NCBI GenBank assembly: GCA_903875275.1
Contig: CAIQVX010000331.1
Coordinates: 1-40,885, forward strand
Source of the DNA: an uncultured beta proteobacterium
GTDB lineage: Bacteria; Pseudomonadota; Gammaproteobacteria; Burkholderiales; Burkholderiaceae_C
Length of the DNA stretch: 40,885 nucleotides
Direction of reading: 5' to 3'
This document shows positions 6,382 through 35,835 of this stretch, piece after piece. The position numbers and the translations under genes were made by a program. Position 1 is the stretch's first letter. Each line of letters begins with the position of its first letter. The notes below the pieces were generated by a model, which worked only from the letters and a program-made list of their open reading frames with translations, was not told where the DNA came from and ran no database searches.

Positions 6382-7767
6382 GTGATTCCTGTGAGCCCAT
6401 CCGCCGTTCCAGCTCCTTCCCTCAAGCAACGCATGTTGCGGGCAACCGGGTGGCTGGTGGGCGGCAACATCTCGTCGCAAGCGCTGCGACTGCTGAGCAA
6501 TCTGATCCTGACCCGACTCCTGGTCCCTGAGGCCTTTGGACTGGTCGCTGCTGTCAACACCCTTTACTTTGCCCTGGTGATGTTCTCGGATCTGGGGGTC
6601 TGGCAGAGTGTCGTCAAGAGCGCGCGCGGCACGCAGGACAAGTTCCTGGGAACCGCCTGGTCGGTCCAGTTGCTGCGTGGCGCCTTGCTGTGTGCTGTGG
6701 TGCTGCTGATTGCGCTGGGCTTTCACCTGGCTGGCCGCATCGGCTACTTCCAGACCGGCACCGTTTATGCAGACCCCCGGCTGCCGCCCATGATTGCTGT
6801 CTTCAGCCTGTGTGCCCTGTTGCAGGGTCTTGAATCCATGAAGCTGGCAATTGCGCAGCGCGAGCTCAAGGTCGCCTATCTGACACGCCTGGAGGTCATC
6901 ACCCAGATTATTGCCATGGTCGTCACGCTGGCGCTGGCGCTGGCCACCCGTTCCGTCTGGAGCCTGTTGGCAGGCACCCTGGTCTCGGCAGCCGCCAGAA
7001 CCGCCATGAGCCACTGGTATTTGCCGGGTCCCTCCTGCAGGCCCGCTTGGGACCAGTCCTGCGCCAGCGAGATCATTGGCTTTGGCAAATGGATCTTTGT
7101 CTCGTCTGTGATCGGATTTTTGGCAGCCCATGGCGAAAAGCTGATTCTGGGGAGCAGCCTGACGACTGAGAGTTTCGGTGTCTTCTCGATTGCGACCACA
7201 CTGATGATGGCGGTCATGAGCGTCTATGCCAGCCTGAACGCGCACATCATCTTTTCGACTCTGAGCGAAGCGCTGCGCAGCGACAGCGAAAGTGCGGCCC
7301 GTGTCTACACCCGTGTCCAGCAAATTGCGGACGCCTTCCTGGGCGTCATGGCGGGCGGCATCTTCATGTCCGGGCACTGGGTCGTTGACCTGCTCTACGA
7401 CCATCGCTATCAGAATGCCGGATGGATGCTGCAGTGGCTGGGACTGGGGCTGCTGGCGATCCGGCACCAGGTGGTGGAACAACTCATGTTTGCCAAAGGC
7501 CAACCGGTCTGGGTCAGCGCCAGCAACAGCGTACGTGCGCTCAGCCTGGCGCTGCTGATCCCAGCCGGCTTCGCTGCAGCCGGTGAGCGAGGAGCCATTG
7601 CTGCCGTGGTTGCAAGTCAGTTTGCCAGTTGGCCGGTGGCCCTTTGGTTCAAGTACCGGCATCAGCTTCTCACCTTCGCGTCCGAGCGGATCTGGCTGCC
7701 GGCTTTCGCCGTTGGTGTGTTGGCGGGCTGGGCCCTGGACTCGGCGCTGAACGCCATTTTGAAGTAA
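6382..7767 (+). CDS. Wzx-like repeat-unit flippase (MOP/PST polysaccharide transporter)
   Basis: The 461-residue protein is strongly hydrophobic, with about 12 predicted membrane helices. It opens with a region like MLRATGWLVGGNISSQALRLLSNLILTRLL, of which the final LTRLLVPEAFGLVA is typical of the PST branch of the MOP superfamily. Such proteins move the undecaprenyl-diphosphate-linked repeat unit from the cytoplasmic to the periplasmic face for Wzy-dependent polymerisation. The longest frame starts at a GTG (6382). A second GTG (6391) and an ATG (6433) are in frame. None has a strong ribosome binding site, and the ATG start would remove 17 non-hydrophobic residues. The gene sits between two GT4 transferase genes in the same unit. 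The family call is firm. Confidence 0.88.
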   Translation: MIPVSPSAVPAPSLKQRMLRATGWLVGGNISSQALRLLSNLILTRLLVPEAFGLVAAVNTLYFALVMFSDLGVWQSVVKSARGTQDKFLGTAWSVQLLRGALLCAVVLLIALGFHLAGRIGYFQTGTVYADPRLPPMIAVFSLCALLQGLESMKLAIAQRELKVAYLTRLEVITQIIAMVVTLALALATRSVWSLLAGTLVSAAARTAMSHWYLPGPSCRPAWDQSCASEIIGFGKWIFVSSVIGFLAAHGEKLILGSSLTTESFGVFSIATTLMMAVMSVYASLNAHIIFSTLSEALRSDSESAARVYTRVQQIADAFLGVMAGGIFMSGHWVVDLLYDHRYQNAGWMLQWLGLGLLAIRHQVVEQLMFAKGQPVWVSASNSVRALSLALLIPAGFAAAGERGAIAAVVASQFASWPVALWFKYRHQLLTFASERIWLPAFAVGVLAGWALDSALNAILK

Positions 7768-10023: not shown

Positions 10024-11412
10024 TTAGTACAGAACGCGCCTGAACGGCGCAGCAGCAAGCGCCGGAGCGGCGGCCTCGCCCTCCACCCGATCAGCGCCTG
10101 GCTTGCGATTCTTGATGCTTTCGCCCCAACCCAGCAGCAGGAATAGCATTGGCTCGGTTTGCGCTCCCATGTAAACGGTGGAGAAGGCAATAAAGCACAT
10201 CAAATAGATGCCTGAAAAAGTGAAGCCAATCGGCGCTTGCCCGGGTGCAGCCGCCAAGCCGAATTTGACCTGGGAAATGATGGCATAAACAAAGATGACG
10301 GCAAACATGGCTGGTGCCAACACGCCATGCTGCAAGGCCATCAGGAAGAAGGCGTTATCGACCGATTCCATGCCCTGAATCTTCGGCACAGTGGTCAAAC
10401 CCCAGCCGGTCCAGAATTTAGCCATCAAAAATTGCTGGTACTGCTCAATCATGACTTTGCGGTACAGCATAGTCTGCGCCTCGCCGCTGAGAATTTCACC
10501 CTCTTTCGGCGTGATGTACGCATCCAGTGCCGTCTGGCCGGCAATGCCCCCCACGAGGAAGACGGCAACGACGATAATCAGCCACTTTTTCCTATCCTTG
10601 GCGTTGCCCACCATGGTCAGAGTCGCGCCGGCAAAGGCACCTATCCAGGGGCCGCGTGAAATAGTCATCAAAGCCATCACGATCAACACAATCGAAATCT
10701 GGTATTTGAATTCCAGTGAAAATCGCTTCGACTGTTTCTGAATCCAGCCTAGCCATCCGGTCTGCGTCTGCTCCCAGACATCCTGCCAAGACAGCCAGCG
10801 ATGCAATCGATAGACTGCAACGATCATGATGCAAGCCAGAATCGGATGTTCGAAAGTACCGGCGGTGCGGGCAATCCCGTAGCGGATCGACACCGAACTG
10901 TAAGAGTTCGGAAACAGGGGCGACAACAACTGGTAAATCGGGCTGACCCAGAACTTCGCCTCATACAGGAATACCGGGAACAGCAATAGGAACATCAGCA
11001 CGAAGCGGCGTGCAGTCTCGACGTCCATGCGTCGGCTGTTGATGATGTAGCGACCCAGCAAAAAGGGACCAATGACCGAACTCACCATGTAATGTGCATA
11101 GTGCTGCGCATCCGAATAACCGCGTCCGAAAAAATCGGCGACGACGCGGATCAGCACATACATCAGCAACAGTGATTCCATTGGACCTATATGGATTTCC
11201 CTGAACTTGTCGCGGACCAGAACGAACAGAATGGGAAAAACCGCTGCCGACATGAAGTTGTAGTCCGCCGCCAGAGGAACATGAATCCAGAAAATGAAGG
11301 GGACGAGCAGAAAAAATGGTATCCAGACACGCAGGAAAGCAGCCTCCAGATCCTTCTTCACGATCACTATGATCGAGATAAGCATCGCGACGAAGACGCT
11401 GTATTCGGTCAT
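10024..11412 (-). CDS. Wzy-like O-antigen/EPS polymerase (O-antigen ligase superfamily)
   Basis: This 462-residue protein is very hydrophobic, with about 11-12 membrane helices and a large periplasmic loop around residues 270-350 (from the SRGPWIGAFAGA segment onward). That layout is characteristic of the Wzy_C/O-antigen ligase superfamily. In a locus with Wzx, Wzc and Wza homologues, the probable role is polymerisation of repeat units at the periplasmic face. Its ATG follows the stop of the wzc-like gene with no gap, so the two are co-translated. Sequence conservation in this family is low, so the call rests on topology, the SRGPWIG motif and context. The protein ends in a soluble charged tail. 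WaaL-type ligase is the alternative, but no LPS-core genes are present. Confidence 0.8.
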   Translation of the reverse strand: MTEYSVFVAMLISIIVIVKKDLEAAFLRVWIPFFLLVPFIFWIHVPLAADYNFMSAAVFPILFVLVRDKFREIHIGPMESLLLMYVLIRVVADFFGRGYSDAQHYAHYMVSSVIGPFLLGRYIINSRRMDVETARRFVLMFLLLFPVFLYEAKFWVSPIYQLLSPLFPNSYSSVSIRYGIARTAGTFEHPILACIMIVAVYRLHRWLSWQDVWEQTQTGWLGWIQKQSKRFSLEFKYQISIVLIVMALMTISRGPWIGAFAGATLTMVGNAKDRKKWLIIVVAVFLVGGIAGQTALDAYITPKEGEILSGEAQTMLYRKVMIEQYQQFLMAKFWTGWGLTTVPKIQGMESVDNAFFLMALQHGVLAPAMFAVIFVYAIISQVKFGLAAAPGQAPIGFTFSGIYLMCFIAFSTVYMGAQTEPMLFLLLGWGESIKNRKPGADRVEGEAAAPALAAAPFRRVLY

Positions 11413-13551
11413 CTATCGGTTGCGCTTTTGCACCCAGCGAACCCGCAGCAATTCCAGCTGCAACCTCAAGTTTGACAAACTCATGAATCGGCCGAATCGT
11501 TCCTTGGTGAGCATCTCGATCATTAGTTCCTTCATGTAACCACCCTGCTGGAACACGGGAATATCGCTCACGAAAAGCCCCACAGCCTCCGGGTCCAGTT
11601 TTTCCAGCAGTCGCTTGGCACGTGTCACTTCACCCTTGCTTACCGATTGTGCTTCGAGCACCATAAAGACCTGTCCCAATGCGTCAATCAGCAGCTCCGC
11701 GTCCGCGCTAAGCAAGACCGGAGGCAAGTCGATCAGGACAAAATCATACTGCTGCGACCACTGGCTGACTGCCTGTTTGAACAGGTCAAGCCTTTGCACA
11801 CCCCCTGAAAGCTGGCTGCCAAAGCCAATCGCCTCCAGATCTTGCCCGTGATGAACAATGGTTTGCCCAATATCTTCCACCGCGACTTGCCCTGCCAGAT
11901 AGTCCGATAGACTCGGACCTTGTGCATCAAAAACGGGACTGGGAGAAAAGCTGTTGGCATCCAGCACCAAGACACGCAGACCCAGTTGCCGTACAACAAC
12001 CGCAGTATCAAGAATGACGGCTGTTGCACTGCCAACCGTCTTGACCGAGGTGAACGCAAATACATTTTTCCCGGATCGCGTCCGGTTGCGCATCAAGGTC
12101 GAAGCGAAACGTCGGGTCTGCTCCTTGGCAAAAATCTGGGAAGCGAGGTCATGACCATCCAACTGCCACCCTGCAGCTGGAATGCCCATCAGTTTCTCAG
12201 CATCATTGACGGTGTAAATACGTCGGTCCACCATGTCCAGGATGATGGCTGCGGCCAGGGCCGCGACGCAAGCTGCCATCAGCAGACCCAGTAGCAATTT
12301 TGTCTTCCCGACGCCCATCGGCATCTCGGCCGGCATGGCTGGCGTGACCAATCGCACAAACCCGATGGCACCAGTCTCGTTTTGCAGATAATTAAGCCGA
12401 TCCCTTACTTCTTTTTGCTCCTGCTCACGCTTGCGAATGTCGCCGGTGATGCGCATCGCTTTCTGGAAATTTCTGGCGTAATCTGCGGCTCGCCCTTCAA
12501 TTTTTTTGAGATTGGCCTCAATCTCCGACTCCACCTGCTTGTTCTGCCGCACTGATGCCGTCAGGCGTGTCTTGACATTGTCAAATGCCGCCTGCTCAAA
12601 TTCCGCTTCCTTGCTTTGCAGACGCTTGTTGATGGCGTCATATTCCGCCAGCGCCGGCTTTCTGGCGGGATGCTTGTCCTCCAACCCGGCCGTCGTTCGT
12701 CCGAGCTCTTCGGATCGCTTGACGACTTCGTTACGCAAAGCCTGCAATCCGTTGTCGGTCAGTCGCATTTCCATGATCGAACGTCCGACCGAGGTTGGTG
12801 TTTCGCGCTGCGCCAGGAACGCTTGCAGCGTCGCTTCGGCGTGCACCCGCTCTATCGAGGCCCCAGTAAATTTCTCTCGCGCCTGGGACAACATGCTGTC
12901 GTAGGGATTGATGACATTGTCGCCAAAGGTGGTCAGTCCAAGCTGCTCGGAGAGTTGCACACGCTGTCCTTCAAGTTGCACAATTTCGTTCTGCAACCTC
13001 CTGGAATTAGCCTCCAATGCATCCACTCTTTCGACCGATCCAAATATCTGCTCGCTCTTGGTCGTTTCCAAAAATGACGTGGTGATGGCGTTGACGATAT
13101 CGGCCAACGTTCCCTTCTTGTCACCTTCCAGGACGATACGAACCATATAGGTGTCCGGAACGGCGCGCACGGAAACCTGCTTTTGCAGAAACTCAATGTA
13201 CTTTCGCTCGGTCATTGCCCCCGGTTGAACGTCGACCTTGGCGTCTCGCAACTTCTTCAGAGCGCGCTGCACGACATCGTAACGTTTGACTGTGGTCGAC
13301 AAATGATTGACAAACTCGCGGTATTGCGAGTTGGACTGCAGTTCGACTTCCTTGTCGGACGAAAGCGTCTTCATGTAGTTGGGGGAAACCTGAAACACCG
13401 ACTCGGCGCTGTAGTAGCTTTGCCCCTTGATCCACACCAGCGGGAGACCCGCTAACAGCACGACCAGCCAGATCGCGATGCTGATCCGGTAATGATTGCG
13501 CAGGCTGCGCATCGGGTTGATGCCGCGTCCTGGCAGTTGACTCGTATCCAT
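11413..13551 (-). CDS. Wzc-like polysaccharide co-polymerase with degenerate BY-kinase domain
   Basis: The 712-residue protein has a Wzz-type N-terminal half: TM1 about 24-42, a periplasmic coiled-coil-rich region about 45-410, and TM2 near 425-445 preceded by a Pro/Met-rich stretch. The cytoplasmic C-terminal domain has the fold of a bacterial tyrosine kinase, but the Walker A loop is lost. Where a GEGKS/T P-loop is expected, residues 501-510 read TSVKTVGSAT, with no Lys. Walker A' (VLVLDAN, 527-533) and Walker B (FVLIDLPPV, 604-612) persist. There is no C-terminal tyrosine cluster, and no low-molecular-weight phosphatase (wzb) gene exists in the window. It probably sets chain length and bridges to the Wza-like channel without autophosphorylation cycles. 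It is divergent from the 13700 transferase and immediately upstream of the polymerase gene. Confidence 0.9.
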   Translation of the reverse strand: MDTSQLPGRGINPMRSLRNHYRISIAIWLVVLLAGLPLVWIKGQSYYSAESVFQVSPNYMKTLSSDKEVELQSNSQYREFVNHLSTTVKRYDVVQRALKKLRDAKVDVQPGAMTERKYIEFLQKQVSVRAVPDTYMVRIVLEGDKKGTLADIVNAITTSFLETTKSEQIFGSVERVDALEANSRRLQNEIVQLEGQRVQLSEQLGLTTFGDNVINPYDSMLSQAREKFTGASIERVHAEATLQAFLAQRETPTSVGRSIMEMRLTDNGLQALRNEVVKRSEELGRTTAGLEDKHPARKPALAEYDAINKRLQSKEAEFEQAAFDNVKTRLTASVRQNKQVESEIEANLKKIEGRAADYARNFQKAMRITGDIRKREQEQKEVRDRLNYLQNETGAIGFVRLVTPAMPAEMPMGVGKTKLLLGLLMAACVAALAAAIILDMVDRRIYTVNDAEKLMGIPAAGWQLDGHDLASQIFAKEQTRRFASTLMRNRTRSGKNVFAFTSVKTVGSATAVILDTAVVVRQLGLRVLVLDANSFSPSPVFDAQGPSLSDYLAGQVAVEDIGQTIVHHGQDLEAIGFGSQLSGGVQRLDLFKQAVSQWSQQYDFVLIDLPPVLLSADAELLIDALGQVFMVLEAQSVSKGEVTRAKRLLEKLDPEAVGLFVSDIPVFQQGGYMKELMIEMLTKERFGRFMSLSNLRLQLELLRVRWVQKRNR

Positions 13552-19692: not shown

Positions 19693-19696
19693 TCCT
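19693..19696 (-). promoter_or_regulatory. Ribosome binding site choosing the GTG start of the FkbH fusion
   Basis: On the minus strand AGGA ends 8 bases before the GTG at 19684. Translation from there begins directly with the IAISSTF segment expected at the start of FkbH proteins. The ATG at 19711 has no comparable site. Confidence 0.5.
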
Positions 19697-19814
19697 GCGA
19701 AAGTGGAGCATGAATGAGCGTGACTCCGGTCATGCTGCATCGGCACCTGATCAATGACAGGGATGGTAGGTCAATGGTCTGGCAAACCATCGCAGAAGTG
19801 TTAAATCAGCGTGG

Positions 19815-25443: not shown

Positions 25444-28440
25444 TCAGTCCTCGATGTAACGGCTCATACGCACTGTGTTGACGCCCTGGTGGTGTAAATA
25501 GTCAACCCGATCACAAGCGCTTCGAATGATGGTCAAACCAAAACCGCCTTCCGGAAAGACGTCAAAATTGGTTTCCGCGATTTCTTCGGGCGGTGTGAAT
25601 TGATCGCCCAAGTGAATCACCTCGAGCACGAATTCCTGTCGCGCACAGTGAGTGATCAGTTCCACGGGTGCGGACACCAGCACGCCTTCGGCGTGTCGAA
25701 CGATGTTGGTGAAAACCTCAACACTGGCCACCTCGAACATGGCTGCTTCCGCCTCTGGCATGCCGCAGCGCAAGGCCTGCAACCTCACAAACTCGCGAAA
25801 CGCCCGCAGAGACTTCATGTCGATGGCCAGTTCGCAACGAACCTTGCTGCTGTTCTCGGGCGGCTGCATCACCAGGACCAGAGAAACGTCATCATTGATA
25901 CTGACATCACAGCGCAGCAGCTCACGGCGCAGCGAGTGCAGGGCCGCTGCCGGCGTGGCATGCTCCTGGACCAGCCTGCGCACAGTGTCATGGATCAATT
26001 CCCGCCCGATCCGTTCCCCGTTGGGCAAAATGGCATCGGCCATGCCGTCTGAACAAAGGAAAAGCGCGTCGCCGACTGCCAACGGCGCTTCATCCTGAAC
26101 CGACTCGATACGATCCAGCACGCCCAGGGGTGGATGCTGGTTTGGCAACAGCATAGTCTGCCCATCCGCGTGAATCAGGAGGGACTCCTCGTGGCCACAG
26201 CCCACCCAGCTGATGACCTTGCGCGAGCGGTCAATCCGGATGTATGACAGCGTGACGAAGGCTTCCAGGGCCTGCAGGTGTGGTGTCATGGCGTGGTGGA
26301 CCGATGACACGATTTCTATCGGCTGCGGCGCAGCCTGCCCCGATTTCTGTGTCGCCAGCAACTCGGCCAATGACCGACTGAACTGCAACTTGGTGGCCGC
26401 GCCCATCAGTGCTGCCGGAACCCCTTTGCCCATGACATCGCCAGTGATGATGTCGACGCAATGCTCCCCAACCTGGATGACTTCCACAAAGTCGCCATCA
26501 ATCCCCTTGGACGCCTGGTTAAAGCTGCTGAGCCACACATCATTCAGGTTCTGCAGCGGACTCGCAGCCAGCAGCGATTGCTGGATCCGGGTGCCAATTT
26601 CCAGTTCGCGCTGACTGGCCTGTGCGAGTGCCATCTCGGTTCGACGCAGCTGGGAAATGTCAGTTTGTATGGTGATGTACTGCCGGATGCTGCCGTCCTG
26701 GTTCGGAACCGGGACCGTGGTGCTGGACACCCAGTAGTTGCCGCCGTCGCGTCGACGCAGAGACAGTTCGCCATGCCAGACCTCCCCCAGCGCGTGGGCC
26801 GAGCGCATTTCAGCGTAGGCAACCGGGTTGAGCCGTTCCCGAAGCTTGTAGTATTTCTTTCCCAACAACTCGTCTTTCGCGAATCCGGAAATTTGAACCA
26901 GCTTGTCATTGGCATAAATGATGGTTCCGTCTACATCCTCGATGCTGACAATGGCGTGCTCATCCAGCGCCATCTTTTGGTGCTCCAGATCCGTGGCCAG
27001 CTCGCGGTACTTGAGCAACAGGTCCGCCTTTTCGCGCTCGTTGCGCTTCTTCTCGCTGATATCACGCACCGAGACTGTGAAGAAGGTCTTCCCGTGTACC
27101 CGCAGCGGAATGATCGTCAGCTCGATCGGAAAGCTGCTCTGGTCTGACCGCATGCCAACGGTTTCGATGCGCCTGTTCAGCCGGTCCAGCACCGGACCGT
27201 CACCGTCGCGCGCAAATCGCTGCATGCCCTCCTGGTGGTCCCGCCGCATGCCTTTAGGCACCATGAAATCATGAAGTGGCTTGCCTACAACCTCGGTCTC
27301 GCTGCGCCCGAACATGGTTTGGATGGCAGGATTGACAGCGACGATGCAACCATCCGAATTCACGGTCAGCATGCCATCGAGGGAGGACTCAAACATCGCC
27401 CGTTGTCGGGCGTCGCTGGCATAGACTGCCTGATGCAGTTCCTCGTTGATGGATTGGTGGCGCTTCAGACTGCGGGTGGTCACCACCGTGAGCGCCGCAA
27501 TCACCAGCAGGGCACCCAGCGCCAGACTTAAAGTCCAGCGCTGCACGCGCATCACGTCGCTCATGACATCGGAAAGCGATGACTCCACAATAAGTGCCAT
27601 GGGCCACTGCGGCAAAATGGCAAATGCCGTGCTGACACTTTCATTGTCCAGACCGGCGCCGATATAACTGCCCCACTCACGGTTCGGAAGATAGTCGATG
27701 AACAGTCTGATCTGACGCAGCGAACTGCCAAGGGGACGCGCCGTATTGCTGGTGGCAACCAGCAGTTCGCCTTCGTAACTCACAAGCGCGACACGAACCG
27801 TCGGATCGCTGGCTGAAGCCTCGTACACCGAGCTGAAGTAGTCAGCGTTGATCAGCGCAACCAGCGTCTGCCCCTGTCCCATCGGTGTACTCAGTCGAAT
27901 CAGCATGGGCAACACATTCAATCTGGAATCAACCGATGCTCTGCGTGCAATGTCGCTCAGGTCACGGCCAGCCAGCATGGGCCCCATTACGACCCTGGAT
28001 GCGTCCGACGTCGTCACACCGAACACACTCATGTCGACTTTGGTTCCAACATTGCCTGGCGAACTGCTGGCAAGCACCTGTCCACCTTCACTGAGTACCG
28101 AGACACTCCTCAATTGGGGGTATCCGCGCACCATACTGACAATCAGCGGCTCCAACTGCCCCGGCTCGCGCGGATCACGCAAATCACGATCTGTCGAAGC
28201 CAGCACCATCAGCATCGACTCGACGGCACTGATCTCGGTGGCGGACTGACGTGCCATCAGCTTCGCCAACTGCTGGAACTGCATCAGGCTTTGCGCCCGC
28301 CGGTCGCTCTTTTGCAAATCGATAAAGCCCAGGCTCAGAGTCATCACAAGAATCGCCAGCAAACCGGCAATGCCGATCAAGTGGGCGCTGTTCAGCCAGA
28401 CTTTCAGGGGTGATGCGCTCTGCGCATTGTGATCGGACAC
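25444..28440 (-). CDS. Membrane sensor with PAS domains, SpoIIE/PP2C phosphatase and RsbW-like HATPase
   Basis: Starting at the GTG at 28440, which has AGGG 5 bases upstream, the product is 998 residues; GTG 28446 is an alternative. Domains: TM1 (about 20-40), a periplasmic Cache-like sensor region (about 45-300), TM2 (about 303-322), PAS1 (about 350-465), PAS2 (about 480-605), a SpoIIE-type PP2C phosphatase (about 615-840) with metal-binding acids including D668 in GDVMGKG and D798 in CSDGMAD, and an RsbW/SpoIIAB-like HATPase (about 860-998) with the N-box EVFTNIVRHA and the G-box GGFGLTII. It should both phosphorylate and dephosphorylate a STAS antagonist, and the gene for one is just upstream at 29304. 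Signals may come through the periplasmic domain and PAS domains. Placement resembles SypE/SypA and HsbR/HsbA, but with a transmembrane sensor instead of a receiver. Confidence 0.9.
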   Translation of the reverse strand: MSDHNAQSASPLKVWLNSAHLIGIAGLLAILVMTLSLGFIDLQKSDRRAQSLMQFQQLAKLMARQSATEISAVESMLMVLASTDRDLRDPREPGQLEPLIVSMVRGYPQLRSVSVLSEGGQVLASSSPGNVGTKVDMSVFGVTTSDASRVVMGPMLAGRDLSDIARRASVDSRLNVLPMLIRLSTPMGQGQTLVALINADYFSSVYEASASDPTVRVALVSYEGELLVATSNTARPLGSSLRQIRLFIDYLPNREWGSYIGAGLDNESVSTAFAILPQWPMALIVESSLSDVMSDVMRVQRWTLSLALGALLVIAALTVVTTRSLKRHQSINEELHQAVYASDARQRAMFESSLDGMLTVNSDGCIVAVNPAIQTMFGRSETEVVGKPLHDFMVPKGMRRDHQEGMQRFARDGDGPVLDRLNRRIETVGMRSDQSSFPIELTIIPLRVHGKTFFTVSVRDISEKKRNEREKADLLLKYRELATDLEHQKMALDEHAIVSIEDVDGTIIYANDKLVQISGFAKDELLGKKYYKLRERLNPVAYAEMRSAHALGEVWHGELSLRRRDGGNYWVSSTTVPVPNQDGSIRQYITIQTDISQLRRTEMALAQASQRELEIGTRIQQSLLAASPLQNLNDVWLSSFNQASKGIDGDFVEVIQVGEHCVDIITGDVMGKGVPAALMGAATKLQFSRSLAELLATQKSGQAAPQPIEIVSSVHHAMTPHLQALEAFVTLSYIRIDRSRKVISWVGCGHEESLLIHADGQTMLLPNQHPPLGVLDRIESVQDEAPLAVGDALFLCSDGMADAILPNGERIGRELIHDTVRRLVQEHATPAAALHSLRRELLRCDVSINDDVSLVLVMQPPENSSKVRCELAIDMKSLRAFREFVRLQALRCGMPEAEAAMFEVASVEVFTNIVRHAEGVLVSAPVELITHCARQEFVLEVIHLGDQFTPPEEIAETNFDVFPEGGFGLTIIRSACDRVDYLHHQGVNTVRMSRYIED

Positions 28441-28445
28441 GGTCA

Positions 28446-28449
28446 CCCT
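28446..28449 (-). promoter_or_regulatory. Ribosome binding site in the stop codon region of the preceding gene
   Basis: AGGG on the minus strand overlaps the TAG stop of the binding-protein gene and lies 5 bases from the GTG at 28440. This supports a start there and tight translational coupling, rather than the longer frame from 28584. Confidence 0.45.
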
Positions 28450-29287
28450 ACTTTGCAACGATGATGTCGCCCAGGCCGTACTTCCTGGCCGCCTTGTCAA
28501 GACGACCATCTGACTTGATGCGGCCGACAAACTGATCAACCTGTGCCAGCCAATCCGTGTCGCCAGGCTTGACCGCATAGGCATAGGGAATGAGACTGAA
28601 AGGCTTCGGCGGTGGCACCAGACGCACCCAATCAGCGCTCGCCATCAGACGGCGACTGTAGGGATAGTCTGTCATGAACACGTCAACACGCCCTGATTCG
28701 AGTTCCTGCTCACGCGTCATGGGTGGCCGGATCACAACCAGTTTCGCCTGCTTGAGTGTGGCCGCCATCACGGGCTCCATGAAGGTCCCAGCCTGAACCG
28801 CAACCTGAATCCCCGGCTTGTCTATATCGTCCCAATTCCGGATGCTACGGCTGGCGCGTGTGGTGATGCCATAGACGTCGCTTTGCAGGTAGGGCTGAGT
28901 GAATTTCAACGATTGCTGCCGCTGCGCTGTGACGCCGACCGCAAACATGGCCACATCACATCGATCGTCCAGCAGATCAGGGATCAGTCTGGCGAAGGAG
29001 GACTCCACGTACTCCAGCCGCACACCGAGGTCCCTGGCAAATTCGCCGGAAAGATCAATATCAATACCGTCGAGTTGCTGATTGCGGGGATTACGAAAGG
29101 TAATGCCATAGTAGTCTGGCCAGATGCAGGCCCGAAGTAGCTTCGCAGTTCGAACACGTTCTGCGACCGCGCCTGCGCCTGCCAAAGGCATCGCCAGCAG
29201 GCTCGCTCCTGCGAGCAGGACCAGAGCACATACCCGACCGCTGGCGCCTGAAAAAAACCGATGTCGTCCTGAGAACTCCACATCCAT
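28448..29287 (-). CDS. Periplasmic solute-binding protein, family 3 (amino-acid type), orphan
   Basis: The ATG at 29287 gives 279 residues. The longer frame from 29341 would overlap the upstream antagonist gene. A basic start (SGRHRFF) and a hydrophobic stretch to an AGAGAVAE-like cleavage region form a signal peptide. The mature part has the SBP_bac_3 fold markers: IDIDLSGEFARDLGVRLEYV, LLDDRCDVAMFAVGVTAQRQ, IQVAVQAGTFME and LESGRVDVFMTDYP. No ABC permease or ATPase gene is near. It sits between the STAS antagonist and the membrane phosphatase/kinase, 7 bases before the latter start. A sensory partner for that protein, or for the hybrid kinase, is more likely than transport. The ligand is unknown. 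Confidence 0.87.
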   Translation of the reverse strand: MDVEFSGRHRFFSGASGRVCALVLLAGASLLAMPLAGAGAVAERVRTAKLLRACIWPDYYGITFRNPRNQQLDGIDIDLSGEFARDLGVRLEYVESSFARLIPDLLDDRCDVAMFAVGVTAQRQQSLKFTQPYLQSDVYGITTRASRSIRNWDDIDKPGIQVAVQAGTFMEPVMAATLKQAKLVVIRPPMTREQELESGRVDVFMTDYPYSRRLMASADWVRLVPPPKPFSLIPYAYAVKPGDTDWLAQVDQFVGRIKSDGRLDKAARKYGLGDIIVAK

Positions 29288-29303
29288 GTTGCAAACGGGT
29301 GGA

Positions 29304-29642
29304 TCAGGCAAAGGACCTGACCGCCTCCTCGCTCGTGTCATGGATGTTGAAGACCCGGTGCATGCGCATCAGTTCAAACAGTGCACGCACGGTCTTGGAC
29401 ATGGCGCACAATTTGAAATCTCCACGCCTTCCGTTGAGCAGGCGCAAACAGGAAATCAGTGCGCCCAAACCGGAACTATCAACAAACTTCACACCTGACA
29501 TGTCCAGCACCACGCGTGTGCGCTCATGCATCATGGACTGCACGGCGTCCCGGAACTCCCGTGCATTGCTAGCGTCCAGATTGTCTTCGTTGAGTTCGAT
29601 GACCAGTACATCGTTGTCTTCAATTTTTCCCTTGAGTTCCAT
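29304..29642 (-). CDS. STAS-domain anti-sigma-factor antagonist (SpoIIAA/SypA-like)
   Basis: The 112-residue product starts at the second of two tandem ATGs (29642), 7 bases after GAAGGA; the first ATG (29645) is only 4 bases away. The long frame from 29852 is mostly shadow of the HPt gene. It is a single STAS domain with the phosphorylatable serine region VKFVDSSGLGALI (Ser56/Ser57), as in SpoIIAA, RsbV and SypA. The HATPase domain of the 25444-28440 protein would phosphorylate it, and the PP2C domain would dephosphorylate it. Its downstream target, an anti-sigma factor or another partner, is not evident in the window. The start lies inside the last codons of the HPt gene (23-base overlap). 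Confidence 0.9.
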   Translation of the reverse strand: MELKGKIEDNDVLVIELNEDNLDASNAREFRDAVQSMMHERTRVVLDMSGVKFVDSSGLGALISCLRLLNGRRGDFKLCAMSKTVRALFELMRMHRVFNIHDTSEEAVRSFA

Positions 29643-30021
29643 CATCGCTTCCTTCTTTGGTTCGGGTTCGCATTGGTTGGACGGTATTACAGCGCGAACT
29701 GGCGTCAAGAATGTGGCCACAATGTGACGAAGTGGCGGCGCGTCTGATCTCTGCCTCGAGTTCGGCCAGCGCGCCATCCAACCCTGCCCTGGCACCTTGT
29801 CGTGCCCTTGTCTCGGCTTCGCGGGCGCAGCGTCCCAGTGGCTCGAAACCAAAACTGGCGGCGCTACCCGACAGTCTGTGCAGTGCGGCGAGCAGGGTTT
29901 CGTTGTCAGGAGCGCTGTGAATTTCGGCCCACCGCAGAGGCAGCCCAGCGACGTAGCGCTGCCTCAAGGCCACAAACTGCACCCCGATCTCCGCAGGCAG
30001 CCCCTCAGTCGGCGAGGCCAC
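29620..30021 (-). CDS. HPt-domain phosphotransfer protein
   Basis: The likely start is a GTG at 30021, 7 bases after GGGAG and overlapping the receiver gene end by 17 bases. It gives 133 residues. The helical region about 15-115 carries the HPt active site ALHRLSGSAASFGF with His48, followed by a GRCAREAETRARQG helix. HPt proteins relay phosphate between a hybrid kinase receiver and a response regulator. Here the hybrid kinase (30397-32235) and single-domain receiver (30005-30400) are the immediate upstream genes. The last 25 residues are low-complexity and overlap the antagonist start. The relay order is inferred; the active-site motif is seen. Confidence 0.82.
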   Translation of the reverse strand: MASPTEGLPAEIGVQFVALRQRYVAGLPLRWAEIHSAPDNETLLAALHRLSGSAASFGFEPLGRCAREAETRARQGARAGLDGALAELEAEIRRAATSSHCGHILDASSRCNTVQPMRTRTKEGSDDGTQGKN

Positions 30022-30400
30022 CACCAAACTCCCAATAAATACGGATGTCCTGTGGCAACCTGATCGGGTCAAATGGCTTGACGATGACACCCGTGGCACC
30101 GTATTGCAGAAGCTCCTCAACTTCGTCCGGCATCGCCTTGGCAGTCAGGAACACGACTGGCACACCTTCCATCGACTGGTGCGACCGCAATGCGGTGAGC
30201 GTCTGCGGTCCGGTCAGGTCAGGCATCATGACATCGAGCAACACCAGTTGCGGCTGGAAGAGTGGTGCCTTTGCAATGGCGCTGTGACCCCCATCGCACA
30301 TGCAGACCTCGTAGCCACCCAAGGTAGCCAGGCTGAATTCCAGAATCATCCGGATGTCCGGATCATCTTCCACACACAAGACGCGACGCAGATCTTTCAT
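30005..30400 (-). CDS. Single-domain response regulator (receiver)
   Basis: The ATG at 30400 overlaps the kinase stop (ATGA). The product is 131 residues, a stand-alone CheY-like receiver. It has the acidic pair in VLCVEDDPD, phospho-acceptor Asp56 in LVLLDVMMPDLTG, a Thr in VFLTAKAMPD and the Lys in VIVKPFDP. No output domain is attached, so it may work by protein contact, as a phosphate sink or as an intermediate in the relay with the HPt protein downstream. The C-terminus overlaps the HPt start. The longer frame upstream to 30580 lies in the kinase gene and is rejected. Confidence 0.88.
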   Translation of the reverse strand: MKDLRRVLCVEDDPDIRMILEFSLATLGGYEVCMCDGGHSAIAKAPLFQPQLVLLDVMMPDLTGPQTLTALRSHQSMEGVPVVFLTAKAMPDEVEELLQYGATGVIVKPFDPIRLPQDIRIYWEFGGGLAD

Positions 30401-32235
30401 GGCAGCTCCTGCCTCCCCACCTTGACGATGGCGGACCGTACCGCGGCCAGTACGTCGTCGCTGGCAGTCTGTGACTTTCGCAGCCACTTCAAGCCCATGC
30501 GATTCACAAATGACTCGTCCACGCTGTCGCTGTACAGAATGACGGGCCTGCCATTTGCCAAGCGCTTCAGCGCAGCACAAAATTCCTCCGCCGCACCCTG
30601 TGCCCGGGGATCCGCAAAAATGATCGGCGCACGATCAAGCCCTTCAAGAGCCTGCGCCCGCTGCAGATCGGAAACTCCCTCCACCCGGCACAGCGATGAC
30701 AGCCAACTGGCCACGCGAAGCCGGGCATCCACATCGGCATCAATGTGCAGCAACCAAGGCGAAGACACCTCGGTACTCACGTCAGCTCGCGAGAACTCGA
30801 CGCTGAAGGTGGCGCCTTCACCAGGTACCGAATCAACGTCGATGCGCCCGCCCATGCGATCGACCAACATGCGACTGATGTACAAGCCCAGACCGGTCCC
30901 ACCCTGGGCGCGCCGGTCGGAACCATCAGCCTGTGAAAACTTCTCAAACAGGCGAAGCCGGAACTTCGGGTCCACGCCCGGTCCCCGATCACGAACTTTG
31001 ACGCGAACCCGGTTCGCAGACCAACCCAGGCTCACGGTCACCATATCGCCCTTGGCCGAATGCTTGATGGCATTGGACAGCAAGTTGGCCATGACCTGCA
31101 GGAAGCGCTCCCCATCAATGCGAACCTGCGGACTGCCTTCCGGTATGTCGGCATTGAGAGTCACGCTGCCCCGTTGCGCGTAGCCCTGGTTGGCCGCCAT
31201 CGCCTCTCTCAGCAGTTCATCAAGCCGCGTCGCTCGCAACTGCAGCACCATCTGATTGCCTTCGAGCTTGGTCAGATCCAGGATATCGTCGATCAAGCGG
31301 CTCAGGCGCTCCCCATTGCGTTTGGCAATTTCGGCCAATGGCACGGCAGCCTTTGGCAAGACACCGGCGGCACCACTGGCCAGGAGGCCCAAAGCACCCC
31401 GGATCGAGGTCAGGGGAGTGCGCAGTTCGTGGCTGACTGTGGCCAGAAACTCATCTTTCATGCGTTCCACGTGACGTCTCTCGGTCAGGTCCCTGATCAC
31501 CAGGGTATGCTGGACACGGCCCTGCTCAATCCAGTCACTGAGCGCCAGTTCGGCCGGAAACACACGGCCATCCGCGCGCCGCAAGACCAGTTCGCAATGT
31601 GCCGGCAGTTCACCCAAGGGTCGACCCAACGCCGCCTCCACTTGCTGCCCGGTCAGTTGCCCGCTCTCGCATCCAAAAAGACGCGCTGCAGCAAGATTGC
31701 ACTCTTCAATCAGTCCGTCCCCGTCGAAGGTCAACACCGCATCCAGAATATTATCGTGAATGGCGCGCTGGCGCTGTGCCAGCGCCGCCAGGCGTGACTG
31801 CAGGCCCAGCACCCGGGCGTAGTGACGCAACTTGGCCTCCAACAAGCCTGGGCTGATGGGGCGTACCAGATAATCGTCGGCGCCATGCGTCAATGCGTGA
31901 ATGAAGTGCTCTTCGCCTTCCAGCGAAGACGTCACGATCACCGGCAACCAGCGCTCTGTGACCACCTCGCGTATGCGGCGCGTCACTTCAAAGCCGTCCA
32001 TGCCCGGCATCAGGAGGTCAAGCAGCACGACGTCGGGCTCCTGCTCGCGCACCTGCTCGATCGCGGTCTGCCCACTCGCCGCCTCCAGCGCCAGATGCCC
32101 GAGCCCTCGCAACAAGTCGCACAGATGCAGGCGTGAGTCCAGTATGTCGTCCGCCACCAGAACCCGCAAAGCGGACCGAGCCTTGCGGGATCTGTCCACA
32201 GAGTTCACGTCGTAGACGGTTTGGTGCGAAGCCAT
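30397..32235 (-). CDS. Hybrid histidine kinase: receiver-PAS-HisKA-HATPase-divergent receiver
   Basis: The 612-residue cytoplasmic protein has an N-terminal receiver (about 22-140), with Asp73 in VVLLDLLMPGMDG but Arg in place of the near-invariant Lys (DYLVRPIS, about 121-128). It then has a PAS domain (about 155-255), HisKA with His269 in FLATVSHELRTPL, and HATPase_c with N, G1 and G2 boxes (NLLSNAIKHS, VRDRGPGVD, GGTGLGLYISRMLV). The C-terminal about 115 residues form a divergent receiver (LLHIDADVD, IIFADP, VILYSDS, LRKSQ). No membrane helix is present, so signals are probably cytoplasmic or come from partners. It is the first gene of the minus-strand operon, divergent from the priming transferase gene, and is followed by the receiver and HPt genes. 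Confidence 0.9.
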   Translation of the reverse strand: MASHQTVYDVNSVDRSRKARSALRVLVADDILDSRLHLCDLLRGLGHLALEAASGQTAIEQVREQEPDVVLLDLLMPGMDGFEVTRRIREVVTERWLPVIVTSSLEGEEHFIHALTHGADDYLVRPISPGLLEAKLRHYARVLGLQSRLAALAQRQRAIHDNILDAVLTFDGDGLIEECNLAAARLFGCESGQLTGQQVEAALGRPLGELPAHCELVLRRADGRVFPAELALSDWIEQGRVQHTLVIRDLTERRHVERMKDEFLATVSHELRTPLTSIRGALGLLASGAAGVLPKAAVPLAEIAKRNGERLSRLIDDILDLTKLEGNQMVLQLRATRLDELLREAMAANQGYAQRGSVTLNADIPEGSPQVRIDGERFLQVMANLLSNAIKHSAKGDMVTVSLGWSANRVRVKVRDRGPGVDPKFRLRLFEKFSQADGSDRRAQGGTGLGLYISRMLVDRMGGRIDVDSVPGEGATFSVEFSRADVSTEVSSPWLLHIDADVDARLRVASWLSSLCRVEGVSDLQRAQALEGLDRAPIIFADPRAQGAAEEFCAALKRLANGRPVILYSDSVDESFVNRMGLKWLRKSQTASDDVLAAVRSAIVKVGRQELP

Positions 32236-32329: not shown

Positions 32330-33028
32330 ATGACAGGATCTTCAATGCCCGAGCTCAAAGTACCACTGGCCAACCGCTTGCGCGCACGTCGCGCACGCCT
32401 TGTCTGGTGGTGGTCCACGCGCAAATTGCCACTGCTCAAACGGGCTCTCGATGTCATGCTGGTACTGTCAGCGTTGCTGTTGCTGGCGCCGGTGTTCCTG
32501 CTGGTGGCACTGGCGATCAAACTGTACGACCGGGGCCCGGTGCTGTTTTGGCAGAAACGTGTCGGTCTGCACGGAAAAATCTTCGAATTCCCCAAATTCA
32601 GATCCATGTGTGTCAACGCAGAAGCGGTTCGGGCTGCACTCATGGCCAGCAACGAGCATGGTAGCGAAGGCGTCACTTTCAAGATGAAGCGCGATCCGCG
32701 CATCACACCGGTGGGACGACTCATACGGCGCACCAGCATCGATGAGCTGCCGCAGCTGTGGTGCGTGCTGACTGGCGAGATGAGTCTGGTCGGACCGCGC
32801 CCGCCCTTGGTCGACGAAGTCGCGCGCTACACCATGCAGGAGCGTCAGCGCCTGTCAGTGACGCCAGGCCTGACCTGCATTTGGCAAGTCAACGGACGCT
32901 CCGAAGTACCTTTCCCGCAACAGGTTCTGATGGACATTGACTACATACAGCAACGCTCCATGAGCACCGACGTCAAATTGCTTGCAATGACCTTGCCAGC
33001 AGTGATTCGTGGCCGTGGTGCCTACTGA
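32330..33028 (+). CDS. Priming phosphoglycosyl transferase (WbaP/ExoY-like, monotopic)
   Basis: The 232-residue product carries the complete small phosphoglycosyl-transferase core. It has a re-entrant hydrophobic helix (about 42-64) after KRALDVML, GPVLFWQKRVG, the FPKFRSM motif, the catalytic Asp138-Glu139 dyad in RRTSIDELPQLW, the MSLVGPRP motif (151-158) and the TPGLTCIWQVNGR segment. It would move a sugar-1-phosphate from a nucleotide sugar to undecaprenyl phosphate at the inner membrane face, the first step of repeat-unit assembly. Which sugar is used is not readable. The next gene, which holds a GT26 domain suited to adding the second sugar, begins 8 bases after the stop. The start is supported by GAGG 8 bases upstream. 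Confidence 0.92.
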   Translation: MTGSSMPELKVPLANRLRARRARLVWWWSTRKLPLLKRALDVMLVLSALLLLAPVFLLVALAIKLYDRGPVLFWQKRVGLHGKIFEFPKFRSMCVNAEAVRAALMASNEHGSEGVTFKMKRDPRITPVGRLIRRTSIDELPQLWCVLTGEMSLVGPRPPLVDEVARYTMQERQRLSVTPGLTCIWQVNGRSEVPFPQQVLMDIDYIQQRSMSTDVKLLAMTLPAVIRGRGAY

Positions 33029-33036: not shown

Positions 33037-35835
33037 ATGGCGAACTGGTTGAGTCCTACTGGGCAGGCGGCTTCCGCCGCCGGCGCACCCTTCGACGAAA
33101 GATCAGACCGGAAGTTGCGTGCACTGGACCTGCTGCTGACACCTCCCACCCTGCTTTTGTGTGCACTCCCAATGGCCTTGAGCCTTCTGGTCGGGCGTCG
33201 CCGCGCCGTGCTCCACTGTGGTCGCAATGGAAAGGAGTTCCGGCGGTGGCAAATTGACTTCCCGAACACCTGGGCCGGGCGTCTGCTTCGAAAAAGTGGT
33301 GTCAGCACCTGGCCCGTGCTGCTCAACATCCTTCGTGGCGAAATGGCCTGGGTCGGTCCCCGACCCAGCGTCAGCGCCGGTCCGGATTCCAGGCCGCCCG
33401 CTGTGGCATCGGTACGCCCGGGCCTGGTCAGCATCTGGGAGTTGCGCCGCCGCACGGCAGTCGACTTCGGCACCGAAATCGACGCTGATATCGAATACGC
33501 TGCGCAGCGCGGACTGCAACATGATCTGGGTCTGCTGCTGCGCGCGTTCATGCTGCTGTGGCTGCCCGCGCCAAGGGAAACCAGCGAAGCACGCGTGTGC
33601 GTGGGCGATGTATCGTTCGACAACGTCACGATGGCGCAGGCCGTGACCCGGATCGCCGGGATGCTCAATGGCAGCGACGTTCAGCAGGTGAGTTTTGTCA
33701 ACCCTGCCTGCGTCAATATTGCCGCAGGTGACCGCGGCTACCGCCGACTGCTGACGCGAGCGGCTCTGGTGCTGCCGGACGGGATCGGCATCAAGATCGC
33801 GGCAGACCTGCTGGGCGTACCCCTGAAACAGAACGTCAACGGGACCGACCTGTTCCCGCGCCTTTGTGAAATGCTGCAGGAGCAGGACGCCAGCCTGTTC
33901 CTGCTCGGTGGCCGCCCCGGGGTGGCCGAGCGCGTCGCGGAGGTCATCCATACGGGCTGGCCACAGTTGCGCATTGCAGGCTTGCGGGATGGCTATTTTG
34001 ATACCGCACAGGAAGGTGATGTTGCTGCACAGGTGAGGACCAGCGGGGCCGACGTTCTGTTCGTGGCTCGAGGCGTACCGATGCAGGACGTCTTCATCGA
34101 CAGGCATCTGCATCAGCTTGGCGTCAAGGTGGCCATAGGTGTTGGCGGGCTGTTTGATTTTGTGTCCGGCCGCATCAGCCGCGCCCCGGGCTGGATGCGC
34201 GATAGCGGCCTGGAATGGATCTATCGCCTGCTGCAGGAGCCCGGTCGGATGTGGCGACGTTACCTTGTGGGCAACTTCAGTTTCCTTGGTCGCATCGTGT
34301 TGCAATGTCTGGGTCTGCGCAAACCAGCCAATGATCACCTGAAACCGGCCATTCCATTGATGAACGCAGCTGGCGCAGGAATTTCCGGACTGCGAACAGT
34401 TCTGTTTGCAACCGCCACTTCACCGAAGGACGTACCCGTTCCGGATGACTTTCCGGCCGCGCTTTTGCCACTGGGACACAGCACCTTTGCTGAACGCGCC
34501 CTCGAACAACTTTCCAACGCCGGTGTCAGGCAGGTAGACGTGGTCGTGAGTTCGCGTCCGGAGGAGTTGCGCAGGCTGCTCGGAAACGGCGAACGCTGGG
34601 GGGTCAATCTGCGCTGGCATCTGGTCAAGGACGCCAGTACGCCTTACGGTATTTTGCCCTCGCTCGGTCTGGAACAGGTCGAGCGCGTGTTGCTCGGTCA
34701 TGCGGACCGATGGATCGGGGCTGAGGCACTCGCCTCCTTGCTTGAGCGTGATTTCGTGCTGACCCTGGCGAATGAAAATGCGGGTGTCCAGTGGGCAGGC
34801 TGGGGTTGTGTCTCACACAAGCTGCTGGGCGCGATATCACCCTTCAGCAACGAGGCGGCATTGGGATCCCTTATGTGCCGTCAGACCGGCGAACTGATGG
34901 TGCTGGAAGCTGATCAGTTCGTCGCCGTACACACAGCAGAGGACCTGCAGGAAGCACAAACCAGGACAATGACCGGGGAACTGATGGCCCAGGTCCCAGC
35001 CACATGGCTGCAAGCACCCTGGGGCGCCTACAGCCCGGAAGCAGTAGTTCAAGCGGGCGCCGTGATCGAAGGACCAGTACTGATCGGACCTGGCTGCCTG
35101 GTCGCCGCTGGAGCCCGCATCGGACCGGGAACACTTCTGAGCAGTGACTGTGTGATTTCGTCTGACTCCACTGTGCGCAACAGCGTGGTCCTGCCGCATA
35201 CCTACGTGGGCCAGGGTCTGGAACTCGATGGAACCATCGTCAACGCACGCAGTGTGCAACACTTGCGCCTGGGTGTGCGCACTGTCCTTCCAGTCTCCGA
35301 GGGACTGCTGCTGGACCTGAAGCGAAAGAAGACGGTCCGCACTTCCTGGACCGCCCGTCTGCTGGCGTGCCTGGCCTGCTCGGCCCTGCTGCCATGGCTA
35401 TTGATCGACGCCGGAGTGCGCCGCCTGCGCGGCTCAAGGCCGCGTTGGAGTCAGCGTCTGATTGTGGCCGGACAGGACGCGGATAGCGGCCAACTGCGCC
35501 TTCAGCGTTTACGCTGTGCCGGCGCTGATCAGCGGGGGATGGGGCGCCTTCTGGCCCAGTATGGCGCCTGGCTTGACATTGCTGCGGGACACAGAAGCTG
35601 GTTCGGTGCGCGGCCCCGAAGCGAATCGGAATGGTATGCCCTGAGCCGCGACTGGCAAATGCTGCTCGCCAACACGCCAGTGGGGTGTCTGCACGCGCCC
35701 GCCTGGTCCGAGGGTCAAGGCGAAAGTCCGGAAGCGCAGGCCGCTGCCGACGTCTTCTTCGCGGTCAACCAGGGGCCCGTTCAGAGGGTCCGACTCCTGC
35801 TCTCAACCCTGCAGGGCATGCAGACATTCGCCTGA
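33037..35835 (+). CDS. 932-aa multidomain protein: PGT-like, GT26 (WecG/TagA/CpsF), NTP-transferase-like, beta-helix, PGT-like
   Basis: Residues about 28-180 resemble a phosphoglycosyl transferase (membrane helix, KEFRRWQIDFPN, MAWVGPRP at 103-110), but the catalytic Asp-Glu dyad is replaced (RKSGVSTWP, 85-93). Residues about 190-425 are a GT26 domain with intact signatures: SFVNPACVN, LPDGIGIK with Asp248, VNGTDLFP, and GVGGLFDFVSGRISRAPGW. Residues about 450-575 resemble a sugar nucleotidyltransferase without its glycine-rich signature loop. Residues about 665-760 are left-handed beta-helix repeats (AGAVIEGPVLIGPGCLV). A helix (about 775-795) leads to a second PGT-like remnant (GRLLAQYG, WFGARPR, 836-861) lacking the dyad. 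Only GT26 looks catalytic, probably adding the second sugar. The rest may scaffold or regulate priming. Confidence 0.85.
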   Translation: MANWLSPTGQAASAAGAPFDERSDRKLRALDLLLTPPTLLLCALPMALSLLVGRRRAVLHCGRNGKEFRRWQIDFPNTWAGRLLRKSGVSTWPVLLNILRGEMAWVGPRPSVSAGPDSRPPAVASVRPGLVSIWELRRRTAVDFGTEIDADIEYAAQRGLQHDLGLLLRAFMLLWLPAPRETSEARVCVGDVSFDNVTMAQAVTRIAGMLNGSDVQQVSFVNPACVNIAAGDRGYRRLLTRAALVLPDGIGIKIAADLLGVPLKQNVNGTDLFPRLCEMLQEQDASLFLLGGRPGVAERVAEVIHTGWPQLRIAGLRDGYFDTAQEGDVAAQVRTSGADVLFVARGVPMQDVFIDRHLHQLGVKVAIGVGGLFDFVSGRISRAPGWMRDSGLEWIYRLLQEPGRMWRRYLVGNFSFLGRIVLQCLGLRKPANDHLKPAIPLMNAAGAGISGLRTVLFATATSPKDVPVPDDFPAALLPLGHSTFAERALEQLSNAGVRQVDVVVSSRPEELRRLLGNGERWGVNLRWHLVKDASTPYGILPSLGLEQVERVLLGHADRWIGAEALASLLERDFVLTLANENAGVQWAGWGCVSHKLLGAISPFSNEAALGSLMCRQTGELMVLEADQFVAVHTAEDLQEAQTRTMTGELMAQVPATWLQAPWGAYSPEAVVQAGAVIEGPVLIGPGCLVAAGARIGPGTLLSSDCVISSDSTVRNSVVLPHTYVGQGLELDGTIVNARSVQHLRLGVRTVLPVSEGLLLDLKRKKTVRTSWTARLLACLACSALLPWLLIDAGVRRLRGSRPRWSQRLIVAGQDADSGQLRLQRLRCAGADQRGMGRLLAQYGAWLDIAAGHRSWFGARPRSESEWYALSRDWQMLLANTPVGCLHAPAWSEGQGESPEAQAAADVFFAVNQGPVQRVRLLLSTLQGMQTFA

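What the first reader, a model, noticed from the sequence alone, without database searches (positions are those of the whole stretch)
33037..35835. 932-aa protein with dead priming-transferase-like segments at both ends of a GT26 enzyme
Seen: five segments in one frame. The first and last resemble phosphoglycosyl transferases (MAWVGPRP; WFGARPR) but both lack the Asp-Glu catalytic dyad. The nucleotidyltransferase-like part lacks its glycine-rich loop, while GT26 motifs (LPDGIGIK, NGTD, the GVGGLFDF end) are intact. The intact priming enzyme is encoded 8 bases upstream. Known: PGT and GT26 enzymes catalyse the first two steps in many polymer pathways. Inference: the pseudo-PGT parts may pair with the active PGT to channel Und-PP-sugar into GT26, while the NTP-transferase/beta-helix part may sense nucleotide sugar. 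I know of no described system with this architecture.
Basis: partly seen in the sequence, partly recalled or inferred. Interest (0 to 1): 0.75.

Follow-up and report, generated by a model that had tools for sequence, protein, structure and literature searches.

The report
Dead priming-enzyme scaffold for polysaccharide initiation
Some relatives of Rhodoferax bacteria make a large protein in which three worn-out sugar-handling enzyme parts surround one that looks intact; its gene sits beside the gene for the working enzyme that starts the same slime polymer, so it probably acts as a scaffold or switch for the first steps of slime production.

Summary
Window 33037-35835 (+) encodes 932 aa: pseudo-PGT, GT26, pseudo-nucleotidyltransferase, left-handed beta-helix, pseudo-PGT. 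An intact PGT gene ends 8 bases upstream. Neither PGT-like end keeps the Asp-Glu dyad (0 of 16 aligned rows each); GT26 keeps its key residues. The C-terminal end has no Pfam match, but its AlphaFold model matches only PglC (Foldseek E 2.9e-4), and a distant relative keeps the PGT motif there with the dyad replaced.

I found homologues in 27 genomes, window included. In 26 of 26 with upstream sequence a PGT is adjacent (22), fused in the preceding gene (2) or one gene away (2). In 399 family genomes, 11 have the dead C-terminal module and 12 this PGT type; all 11 overlap. Two genomes of another order fuse pseudo-PGT, GT26 and active PGT. A STAS gene lies within about 10 kb in 20 of 20 module loci and 0 of 16 control PGT loci.

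Best reading: a non-catalytic partner of the active PGT, coupling steps 1 and 2 of a Wzx/Wzy exopolysaccharide, probably under STAS/response-regulator control. Complex, channelling and sensing are inferred. I found no published pseudo-PGT in the library searched.

The parts
32330..33028 (+). intact small monotopic phosphoglycosyl transferase (232 aa), SIDELPQLW dyad, VGPRPP motif
33037..35835 (+). 932-aa five-segment protein
33097..33576 (+). segment 1, residues 21-180: pseudo-PGT, dyad lost (residues 90-91), MAWVGPRP and RPGLVSIW kept
33592..34311 (+). segment 2, residues 186-425: GT26 (WecG/TagA/CpsF); N222, D248, Q350, R397, R404 in 16 of 16 rows
34384..34971 (+). segment 3, residues 450-645: nucleotidyltransferase fold without the GGxGTR loop and GD motif
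34999..35271 (+). segment 4, residues 655-745: left-handed beta-helix (hexapeptide repeats)
35338..35811 (+). segment 5, residues 768-925: second pseudo-PGT, WFGARPR, dyad lost
30397..32235 (-). sensor histidine kinase with receiver domain, divergent from the PGT gene
30005..30580 (-). response regulator; receiver is the only domain found
29304..29852 (-). STAS-domain protein with a DSSG serine motif
28448..29341 (-). solute-binding family 3 protein
25444..28584 (-). PAS-SpoIIE-HATPase_c_2 protein (STAS phosphatase-type and kinase-type domains in one chain)
2467..3504 (+). Wza-type export protein of the same exopolysaccharide locus
6382..7767 (+). Wzx-type flippase
10024..11412 (-). Wzy-type polymerase/ligase (Wzy_C E 3e-9)
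11413..13551 (-). Wzc-like protein with tyrosine-autokinase-like domain (E 1e-16, below the curated cut-offs)

Best explanation
The 932-aa protein is a pseudoenzyme scaffold fused to a GT26 that looks intact. Its two dead PGT segments and dead nucleotidyltransferase/beta-helix module sit at the inner face of the cytoplasmic membrane with the active PGT encoded just upstream. There they hold or gate that PGT and place GT26 next to it, so that the first two membrane sugars of a Wzx/Wzy exopolysaccharide are added in one complex. The neighbouring histidine kinase, response regulator, STAS protein and SpoIIE/HATPase protein probably feed signals into this complex. Shown here: domain anatomy (sequence and predicted fold), loss of catalytic residues, kept GT26 residues, conservation, genomic coupling, natural fusion. 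Inferred: physical complex, membrane placement, channelling, regulation, nucleotide-sugar sensing.
For: PGT adjacent, fused or one gene away in 26 of 26 loci with upstream sequence. In 399 family genomes: dead module in 11, this PGT type in 12, all 11 shared (Fisher P 1e-20, which treats related genomes as independent). Two genomes of another order (G1123, G1024) encode pPGT-GT26-active PGT as one 670-681 codon frame, followed by a separate protein related to the pNTP-LbH-pPGT module: the same domains split at other joints. In three genomes the module without fused GT26 follows the PGT. dN/dS of the three dead segments is 0.09-0.28 in the 10 pairs with 72-99.5% identity. N-terminal dead PGTs from this family, Azospirillum, G483 and G1123 (15 rows) lie on one side of a supported branch (97/96) from 35 live PGTs, so dyad loss looks old. 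A STAS gene lies within about 10 kb in 20 of 20 module loci and in 0 of 16 other PGT loci; a match to the window's response regulator in 16 of the 20. Precedents: EpsW stimulates the PGT EpsZ (PMC12802240: abstract and section 11 read); HfiA inhibits the WecG/TagA-family HfsJ (PMC3900383: passages).
Against: No complex could be modelled (single chains only) and there are no interaction data. Adjacency and co-occurrence also fit two enzymes of one pathway. The full-length model has pTM 0.51, so domain placement is unknown. The dead segments are less constrained than GT26 (dN/dS 0.05-0.10). The tree has long branches and its live PGTs were picked by a motif containing the dyad. Loci are related, so P values are too small. 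In G1123/G1024 the STAS is 9-10 kb away, 36% identical, with no match to the kinase or regulator. The G348 contig shows kinase and regulator but no STAS match; it ends about 140 bases after the regulator match. The SpoIIE/HATPase gene is not constant: no match in 6 of the 20 loci.
Confidence: 0.55

Rival explanations
1. Membrane anchor only: the dead PGT segments are leftovers of ancestral bifunctional fusions and merely tether GT26 to the membrane; there is no specific partnership with the active PGT.
For: GT26 and an active PGT are fused in Ruegeria and in other genomes, so a degenerate fusion partner is easy to derive. Long helices 21-52 and 771-798 are predicted at the start of both PGT-like segments.
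Against: The dead module without fused GT26 is kept beside the PGT in three genomes. An anchor does not need a nucleotidyltransferase and beta-helix, nor two dead PGTs. Conservation reaches beyond the hydrophobic helices: invariant W, F, G, R, P residues in the C-terminal segment.
Confidence: 0.2
2. Allosteric nucleotide-sugar sensor: the dead nucleotidyltransferase and beta-helix bind a nucleotide sugar and throttle the active PGT, as GMPPA throttles GMPPB.
For: Foldseek hits of the model include tlr0611 (E 2e-13) and GMPPA/GMPPB complex chains (E 4e-11; target TM about 0.55). GMPPA is a non-catalytic allosteric inhibitor (PMC11228364, passages). The accessory domain of WbaP appears to sense nucleotides (PMC10942596, passages).
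Against: Fold similarity says nothing about ligand binding. The nucleotide-binding loop is replaced in 17 of 17 rows, so nucleotide may not bind.
Confidence: 0.15
3. The degenerate segments are still enzymes with changed chemistry.
For: Many positions are invariant in 16 C-terminal segments (for example W104, F105, G106, R108, P109, R110, H135, W139 in A7 numbering), more than a spacer needs.
Against: The N-terminal dyad positions vary freely (8 residue types in column 91, no conserved replacement). I saw no alternative catalytic pair, but did not search for one systematically.
Confidence: 0.06

Closest known systems
Monotopic phosphoglycosyl transferases (small PGT PglC; large PGT WbaP; bifunctional PGTs with fused domains)
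   Same: N-terminal segment matches Bac_transf; C-terminal model matches PglC. Domains fused to a PGT core are a known theme (PMC10942596, passages).
   Different: Here the fused PGT domains lack the dyad and the active PGT is a separate gene; two dead copies flank a GT26.
GT26 WecG/TagA/CpsF glycosyltransferases
   Same: 32-34% identity and target TM 0.91-0.94 to TagA; same key residues.
   Different: The solved TagA chains are stand-alone GT26; here it is embedded between pseudoenzymes.
GMPPA/GMPPB and other NDP-sugar pyrophosphorylases with beta-helix
   Same: Nucleotidyltransferase plus LbH fold; GMPPA is likewise non-catalytic (PMC11228364 passages).
   Different: Glycine-rich loop and GD motif are both lost; it is linked to a PGT, not to a pyrophosphorylase.
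EpsW/EpsZ of Myxococcus xanthus
   Same: Single-domain response regulator controlling polysaccharide synthesis at the PGT (PMC12802240: abstract, section 11).
   Different: EpsZ is a large PGT; no pseudo-PGT partner appears in the parts I read; whether this regulator touches this PGT is untested.
SypA/SypE of Vibrio fischeri
   Same: STAS protein plus a protein with both STAS-kinase and phosphatase domains at a polysaccharide locus; SypA acts below transcription on an unknown target (PMC4517449, PMC10120452: passages).
   Different: No pseudo-PGT protein appears in the passages I read; the target here is only a candidate.

Membership tests
Active monotopic PGT (segments 1 and 5) | PGT fold or profile | tested here: met
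   segment 1 Pfam E 1.5e-15; segment 5 Foldseek to PglC E 2.9e-4, TM 0.58
Active monotopic PGT (segments 1 and 5) | Asp-Glu catalytic dyad | tested here: not met
   0 of 16 rows at each end
GT26 (segment 2) | WecG/TagA profile and fold | tested here: met
   E 4e-61, target TM 0.93 to 7mpk
GT26 (segment 2) | catalytic Asp and conserved Gln (TagA D65, Q167; roles recalled) | tested here: met
   D248 and Q350 in 16 of 16; register
GT26 (segment 2) | sugar transfer to an Und-PP-linked acceptor | not testable with these tools
   needs an assay
NDP-sugar pyrophosphorylase (segments 3-4) | nucleotidyltransferase plus LbH fold | tested here: met
NDP-sugar pyrophosphorylase (segments 3-4) | GGxGTR loop and GD motif (recalled) | tested here: not met
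   0 of 17 rows
Bifunctional PGT | active PGT domain fused to another enzyme | tested here: not met
   PGT domains of the window protein lack the dyad; the fused PGT of G1123/G1024 keeps it
STAS partner-switch system (SypA/SypE type) | STAS protein plus protein with SpoIIE and HATPase_c_2 domains | tested here: met
STAS partner-switch system (SypA/SypE type) | STAS phosphorylation controls polymer synthesis | not testable with these tools
   needs genetics
EpsW/EpsZ type control | target is a large PGT lacking the beta-hairpin | tested here: not met
   the PGT here is 232 aa with Bac_transf only, a small PGT

The most novel reading that the evidence does not exclude
A dead-enzyme scaffold is the docking platform through which a STAS/response-regulator partner switch gates the first two steps of polymer synthesis. 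It would be the first pseudo-PGT with a function and would show what kind of protein STAS regulators of polysaccharide loci, such as SypA, act on.
Probability: 0.28. Interest if true: 0.87.

Novelty: new variant of a known kind. Interest (0 to 1): 0.7.

Why it matters
Initiating PGTs decide where scarce undecaprenyl phosphate goes, and their regulation is poorly understood (PMC10942596, PMC12802240: parts read). A conserved dead copy of the PGT, co-inherited with a live one and linked to STAS signalling, offers a concrete, testable control device. It also gives a candidate target class for STAS proteins such as V. fischeri SypA, whose target was still unknown in a 2023 paper (PMC10120452, passages). 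Pseudoenzymes that regulate a live relative are known elsewhere (GMPPA); I found no paper on one for PGTs (searches; the library lacks most subscription journals).

Tried and rejected
Decayed gene or frameshift artefact: rejected, since the frame is open in 15 complete homologues besides the window and dN/dS is well below 1. Recent duplication of the neighbouring PGT: not supported, because N-terminal dead PGTs, Azospirillum included, group together away from the operon PGTs (with long-branch caution). Profile alignment of the C-terminal segment to PGTs was inconclusive alone (3.8%, E 0.011). Viral link: none found, but the viral-contig scan used GT26 peptide patterns only, and the BFVD search was for the C-terminal model only (no hit at E 0.001). 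The plasmid search gave partial matches in 542 records, none covering 80% of the query. A GT26-STAS fusion in G110 would be a direct link, but the STAS match is weak (E 0.027), so I do not rely on it. One search picked live PGTs by a motif that includes the dyad, so the 32 of 32 D-E count is circular and not used.

Rows dropped: the STAS count (20 of 20) leaves out the window (query source), L058, L064, L069, L073 and L111 (contig ends too close) and G348 (L143: kinase and regulator present, no STAS match, contig ends about 140 bases after the regulator). The 16 control loci were my pick of other PGT matches; their stretches are 6.5-18.3 kb, 2 of 16 have a weak kinase match (25-29%), none a regulator match above 40%. 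The 26 of 26 PGT count leaves out L058 (contig starts inside the gene). G076 has the PGT, kinase, regulator and STAS, but its pseudo-PGT frame runs into unrelated sequence beside an N-run; counted as PGT without module. dN/dS used only pairs of 72-99.5% identity.
Full report
What is there. The frame at 33037-35835 is open for 932 codons. The upstream gene 32330-33028 encodes a complete 232-aa small PGT and stops 8 bases before the ATG. Pfam assigns Bac_transf to residues 77-172, Glyco_tran_WecG to 242-409, hexapeptide repeats near 669-696 and only weak nucleotidyltransferase matches to 475-558; the C-terminal 173 residues have no Pfam match. The AlphaFold2 model of the whole chain (17 aligned sequences) has mean pLDDT 72.9 and pTM 0.51, so folds can be read but not the arrangement of domains. 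Foldseek puts the GT26 part on TagA (target TM 0.91-0.94) and the next part on nucleotidyltransferase/beta-helix proteins such as tlr0611, VTC1, GMPPA/GMPPB and MurU.

The end segments. The N-terminal segment aligns to PGTs with probability 99.5% and E 3e-22. For the C-terminal segment the same test gave only 3.8%, E 0.011 (other segments gave E 0.17-0.73). Folded alone with 16 sequences it reached pLDDT 76.4 and pTM 0.71. Its first three PDB matches were PglC chains (E 2.9e-4, 4.6e-4, 1.7e-3; TM 0.55-0.58; rmsd 6.2-7.3); the next had E 0.73. The module of G1123, which aligns to this region with probability 99.3%, reads AKLPQLWHVAKGNLLLFGAS where the live PGT of the same genome reads [20 protein letters not shown]. 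That is a PGT motif with the dyad replaced.

What is dead and what is not. In alignment A6 (17 rows) the N-terminal dyad columns hold no D-E in any of 16 rows, nor do the C-terminal ones in 16; the nucleotidyltransferase loop and GD motif are replaced in 17 of 17; the GT26 residues N222, D248, Q350, R397 and R404 are invariant in 16 of 16, R407 in 12 of 16. GT26 evolves slowest (dN/dS 0.05-0.10); the dead PGT and nucleotidyltransferase segments sit at 0.09-0.28 and the beta-helix at 0.04-0.27 in 10 pairs: constrained, but mostly less than the enzyme.

Where it occurs. In a set of 60 relatives, six other genomes of the same genus have full-length homologues and one a contig-end fragment. In 399 genomes of the family, 11 have the C-terminal module at E 1e-8. 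A scan of genome contigs gave 17 loci, all titled MAG, named as uncultured beta proteobacterium, Burkholderiales, Rhodoferax, Rubrivivax, Roseateles or Comamonadaceae.

Coupling to the live PGT. A PGT gene is adjacent in 22, fused in the preceding gene in 2, and one gene away in 2 of the 26 loci with upstream sequence. In the family sample the close PGT type (E 1e-68) occurs in 12 genomes, 11 of them the module genomes; I take the two samples of 399 to be the same draw because the listed handles agree, without having checked every one. The twelfth, G076, has an N-terminal pseudo-PGT frame after its PGT that then runs into unrelated sequence beside an N-run, so its true state is unknown. In G1123 and G1024 the order is pPGT-GT26-active PGT in one chain, then a protein related to pNTP-LbH-pPGT in the next (in G1024 the match stops at residue 778; the detailed comparison is of G1123). 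The same domains, cut at different joints in different orders of bacteria, are the strongest sign of one physical machine. Simpler relatives are a 439-aa pPGT-GT26 protein in Azospirillum with its PGT about 3 kb away and GT26-active PGT fusions in Ruegeria and in genomes of other classes.

Signalling neighbours. Divergent from the PGT lie a histidine kinase with a receiver, a response regulator with only a receiver, a STAS protein, a solute-binding protein and a PAS-SpoIIE-HATPase protein. A STAS gene was found in 20 of 20 module loci with enough flank and in 0 of 16 other PGT loci from the same genus (Fisher 1e-10, treating related genomes as independent). A match to the response regulator was found in 16 of the 20. 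Control stretches were 6.5 to 18.3 kb, and in G1123/G1024 the STAS is 9-10 kb away, so the comparison is weakest there. Two controls carry a PGT 65% identical to this one, without module or STAS nearby. The rest of the window is a Wzx/Wzy exopolysaccharide locus with Wza, Wzc-like, Wzx and Wzy proteins, glycosyltransferases and acyltransferases, up to 25441; downstream genes (35911 on) look unrelated.

Mechanism. I commit to a scaffold or gate: dead PGT segments stand in for, or dock onto, the live PGT and hold GT26 beside it, so that the priming sugar and the second sugar are added together; signals from the STAS/receiver set decide when. Only the anatomy, conservation and genomic coupling are shown. 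Precedents for control at these two enzymes exist: EpsW on EpsZ (PMC12802240: abstract and section 11 read) and HfiA on HfsJ (PMC3900383: passages). WbaP's accessory domain is reported to sense nucleotides (PMC10942596: passages and section 10). SypA is a STAS regulator acting below transcription on an unknown target (PMC10120452, PMC4517449: passages).

Novelty. The parts are known kinds. The arrangement, the two pseudo-PGTs and their co-inheritance with a live PGT are not described in anything I found. The library holds open-licence papers only, and the census of monotopic PGTs (O'Toole 2021) was seen only as cited in PMC10942596; it may list such fusions.

Noticed in passing
window 16763-19711 (-): 982-aa protein with FkbH domain, carrier-protein domain and thioesterase inside the exopolysaccharide locus; may point to carrier-bound acyl or glyceryl decoration of the polymer (role of FkbH recalled).
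   Followed up: no
L052 219-1322 (G110): GT26 protein with a C-terminal extension weakly resembling STAS (E 0.027), next to PGT, dead module and a STAS gene.
   Followed up: partly
L053 / L111 (G067): 761-aa homologue in which even the GT26 part has lost its motifs (LPEG, no NGTD), still directly after a PGT gene.
   Followed up: partly
G000:C110 (L127), G001:C85 (L120): A second PGT 65% identical to the operon PGT, without the dead module and without a STAS gene in the stretch fetched; a natural control. The L127 contig ends shortly after the PGT.
   Followed up: partly
   Followed up: partly
L142 (G076) about 9431-9856: PGT followed by an N-terminal pseudo-PGT frame that runs into unrelated sequence beside an N-run; assembly error or deletion unclear.
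   Followed up: no
window 28448-28584: The solute-binding protein ORF and the long SpoIIE/HATPase ORF overlap by 137 bases on the same strand as listed mechanically; the true start of the latter may lie further in.
   Followed up: no
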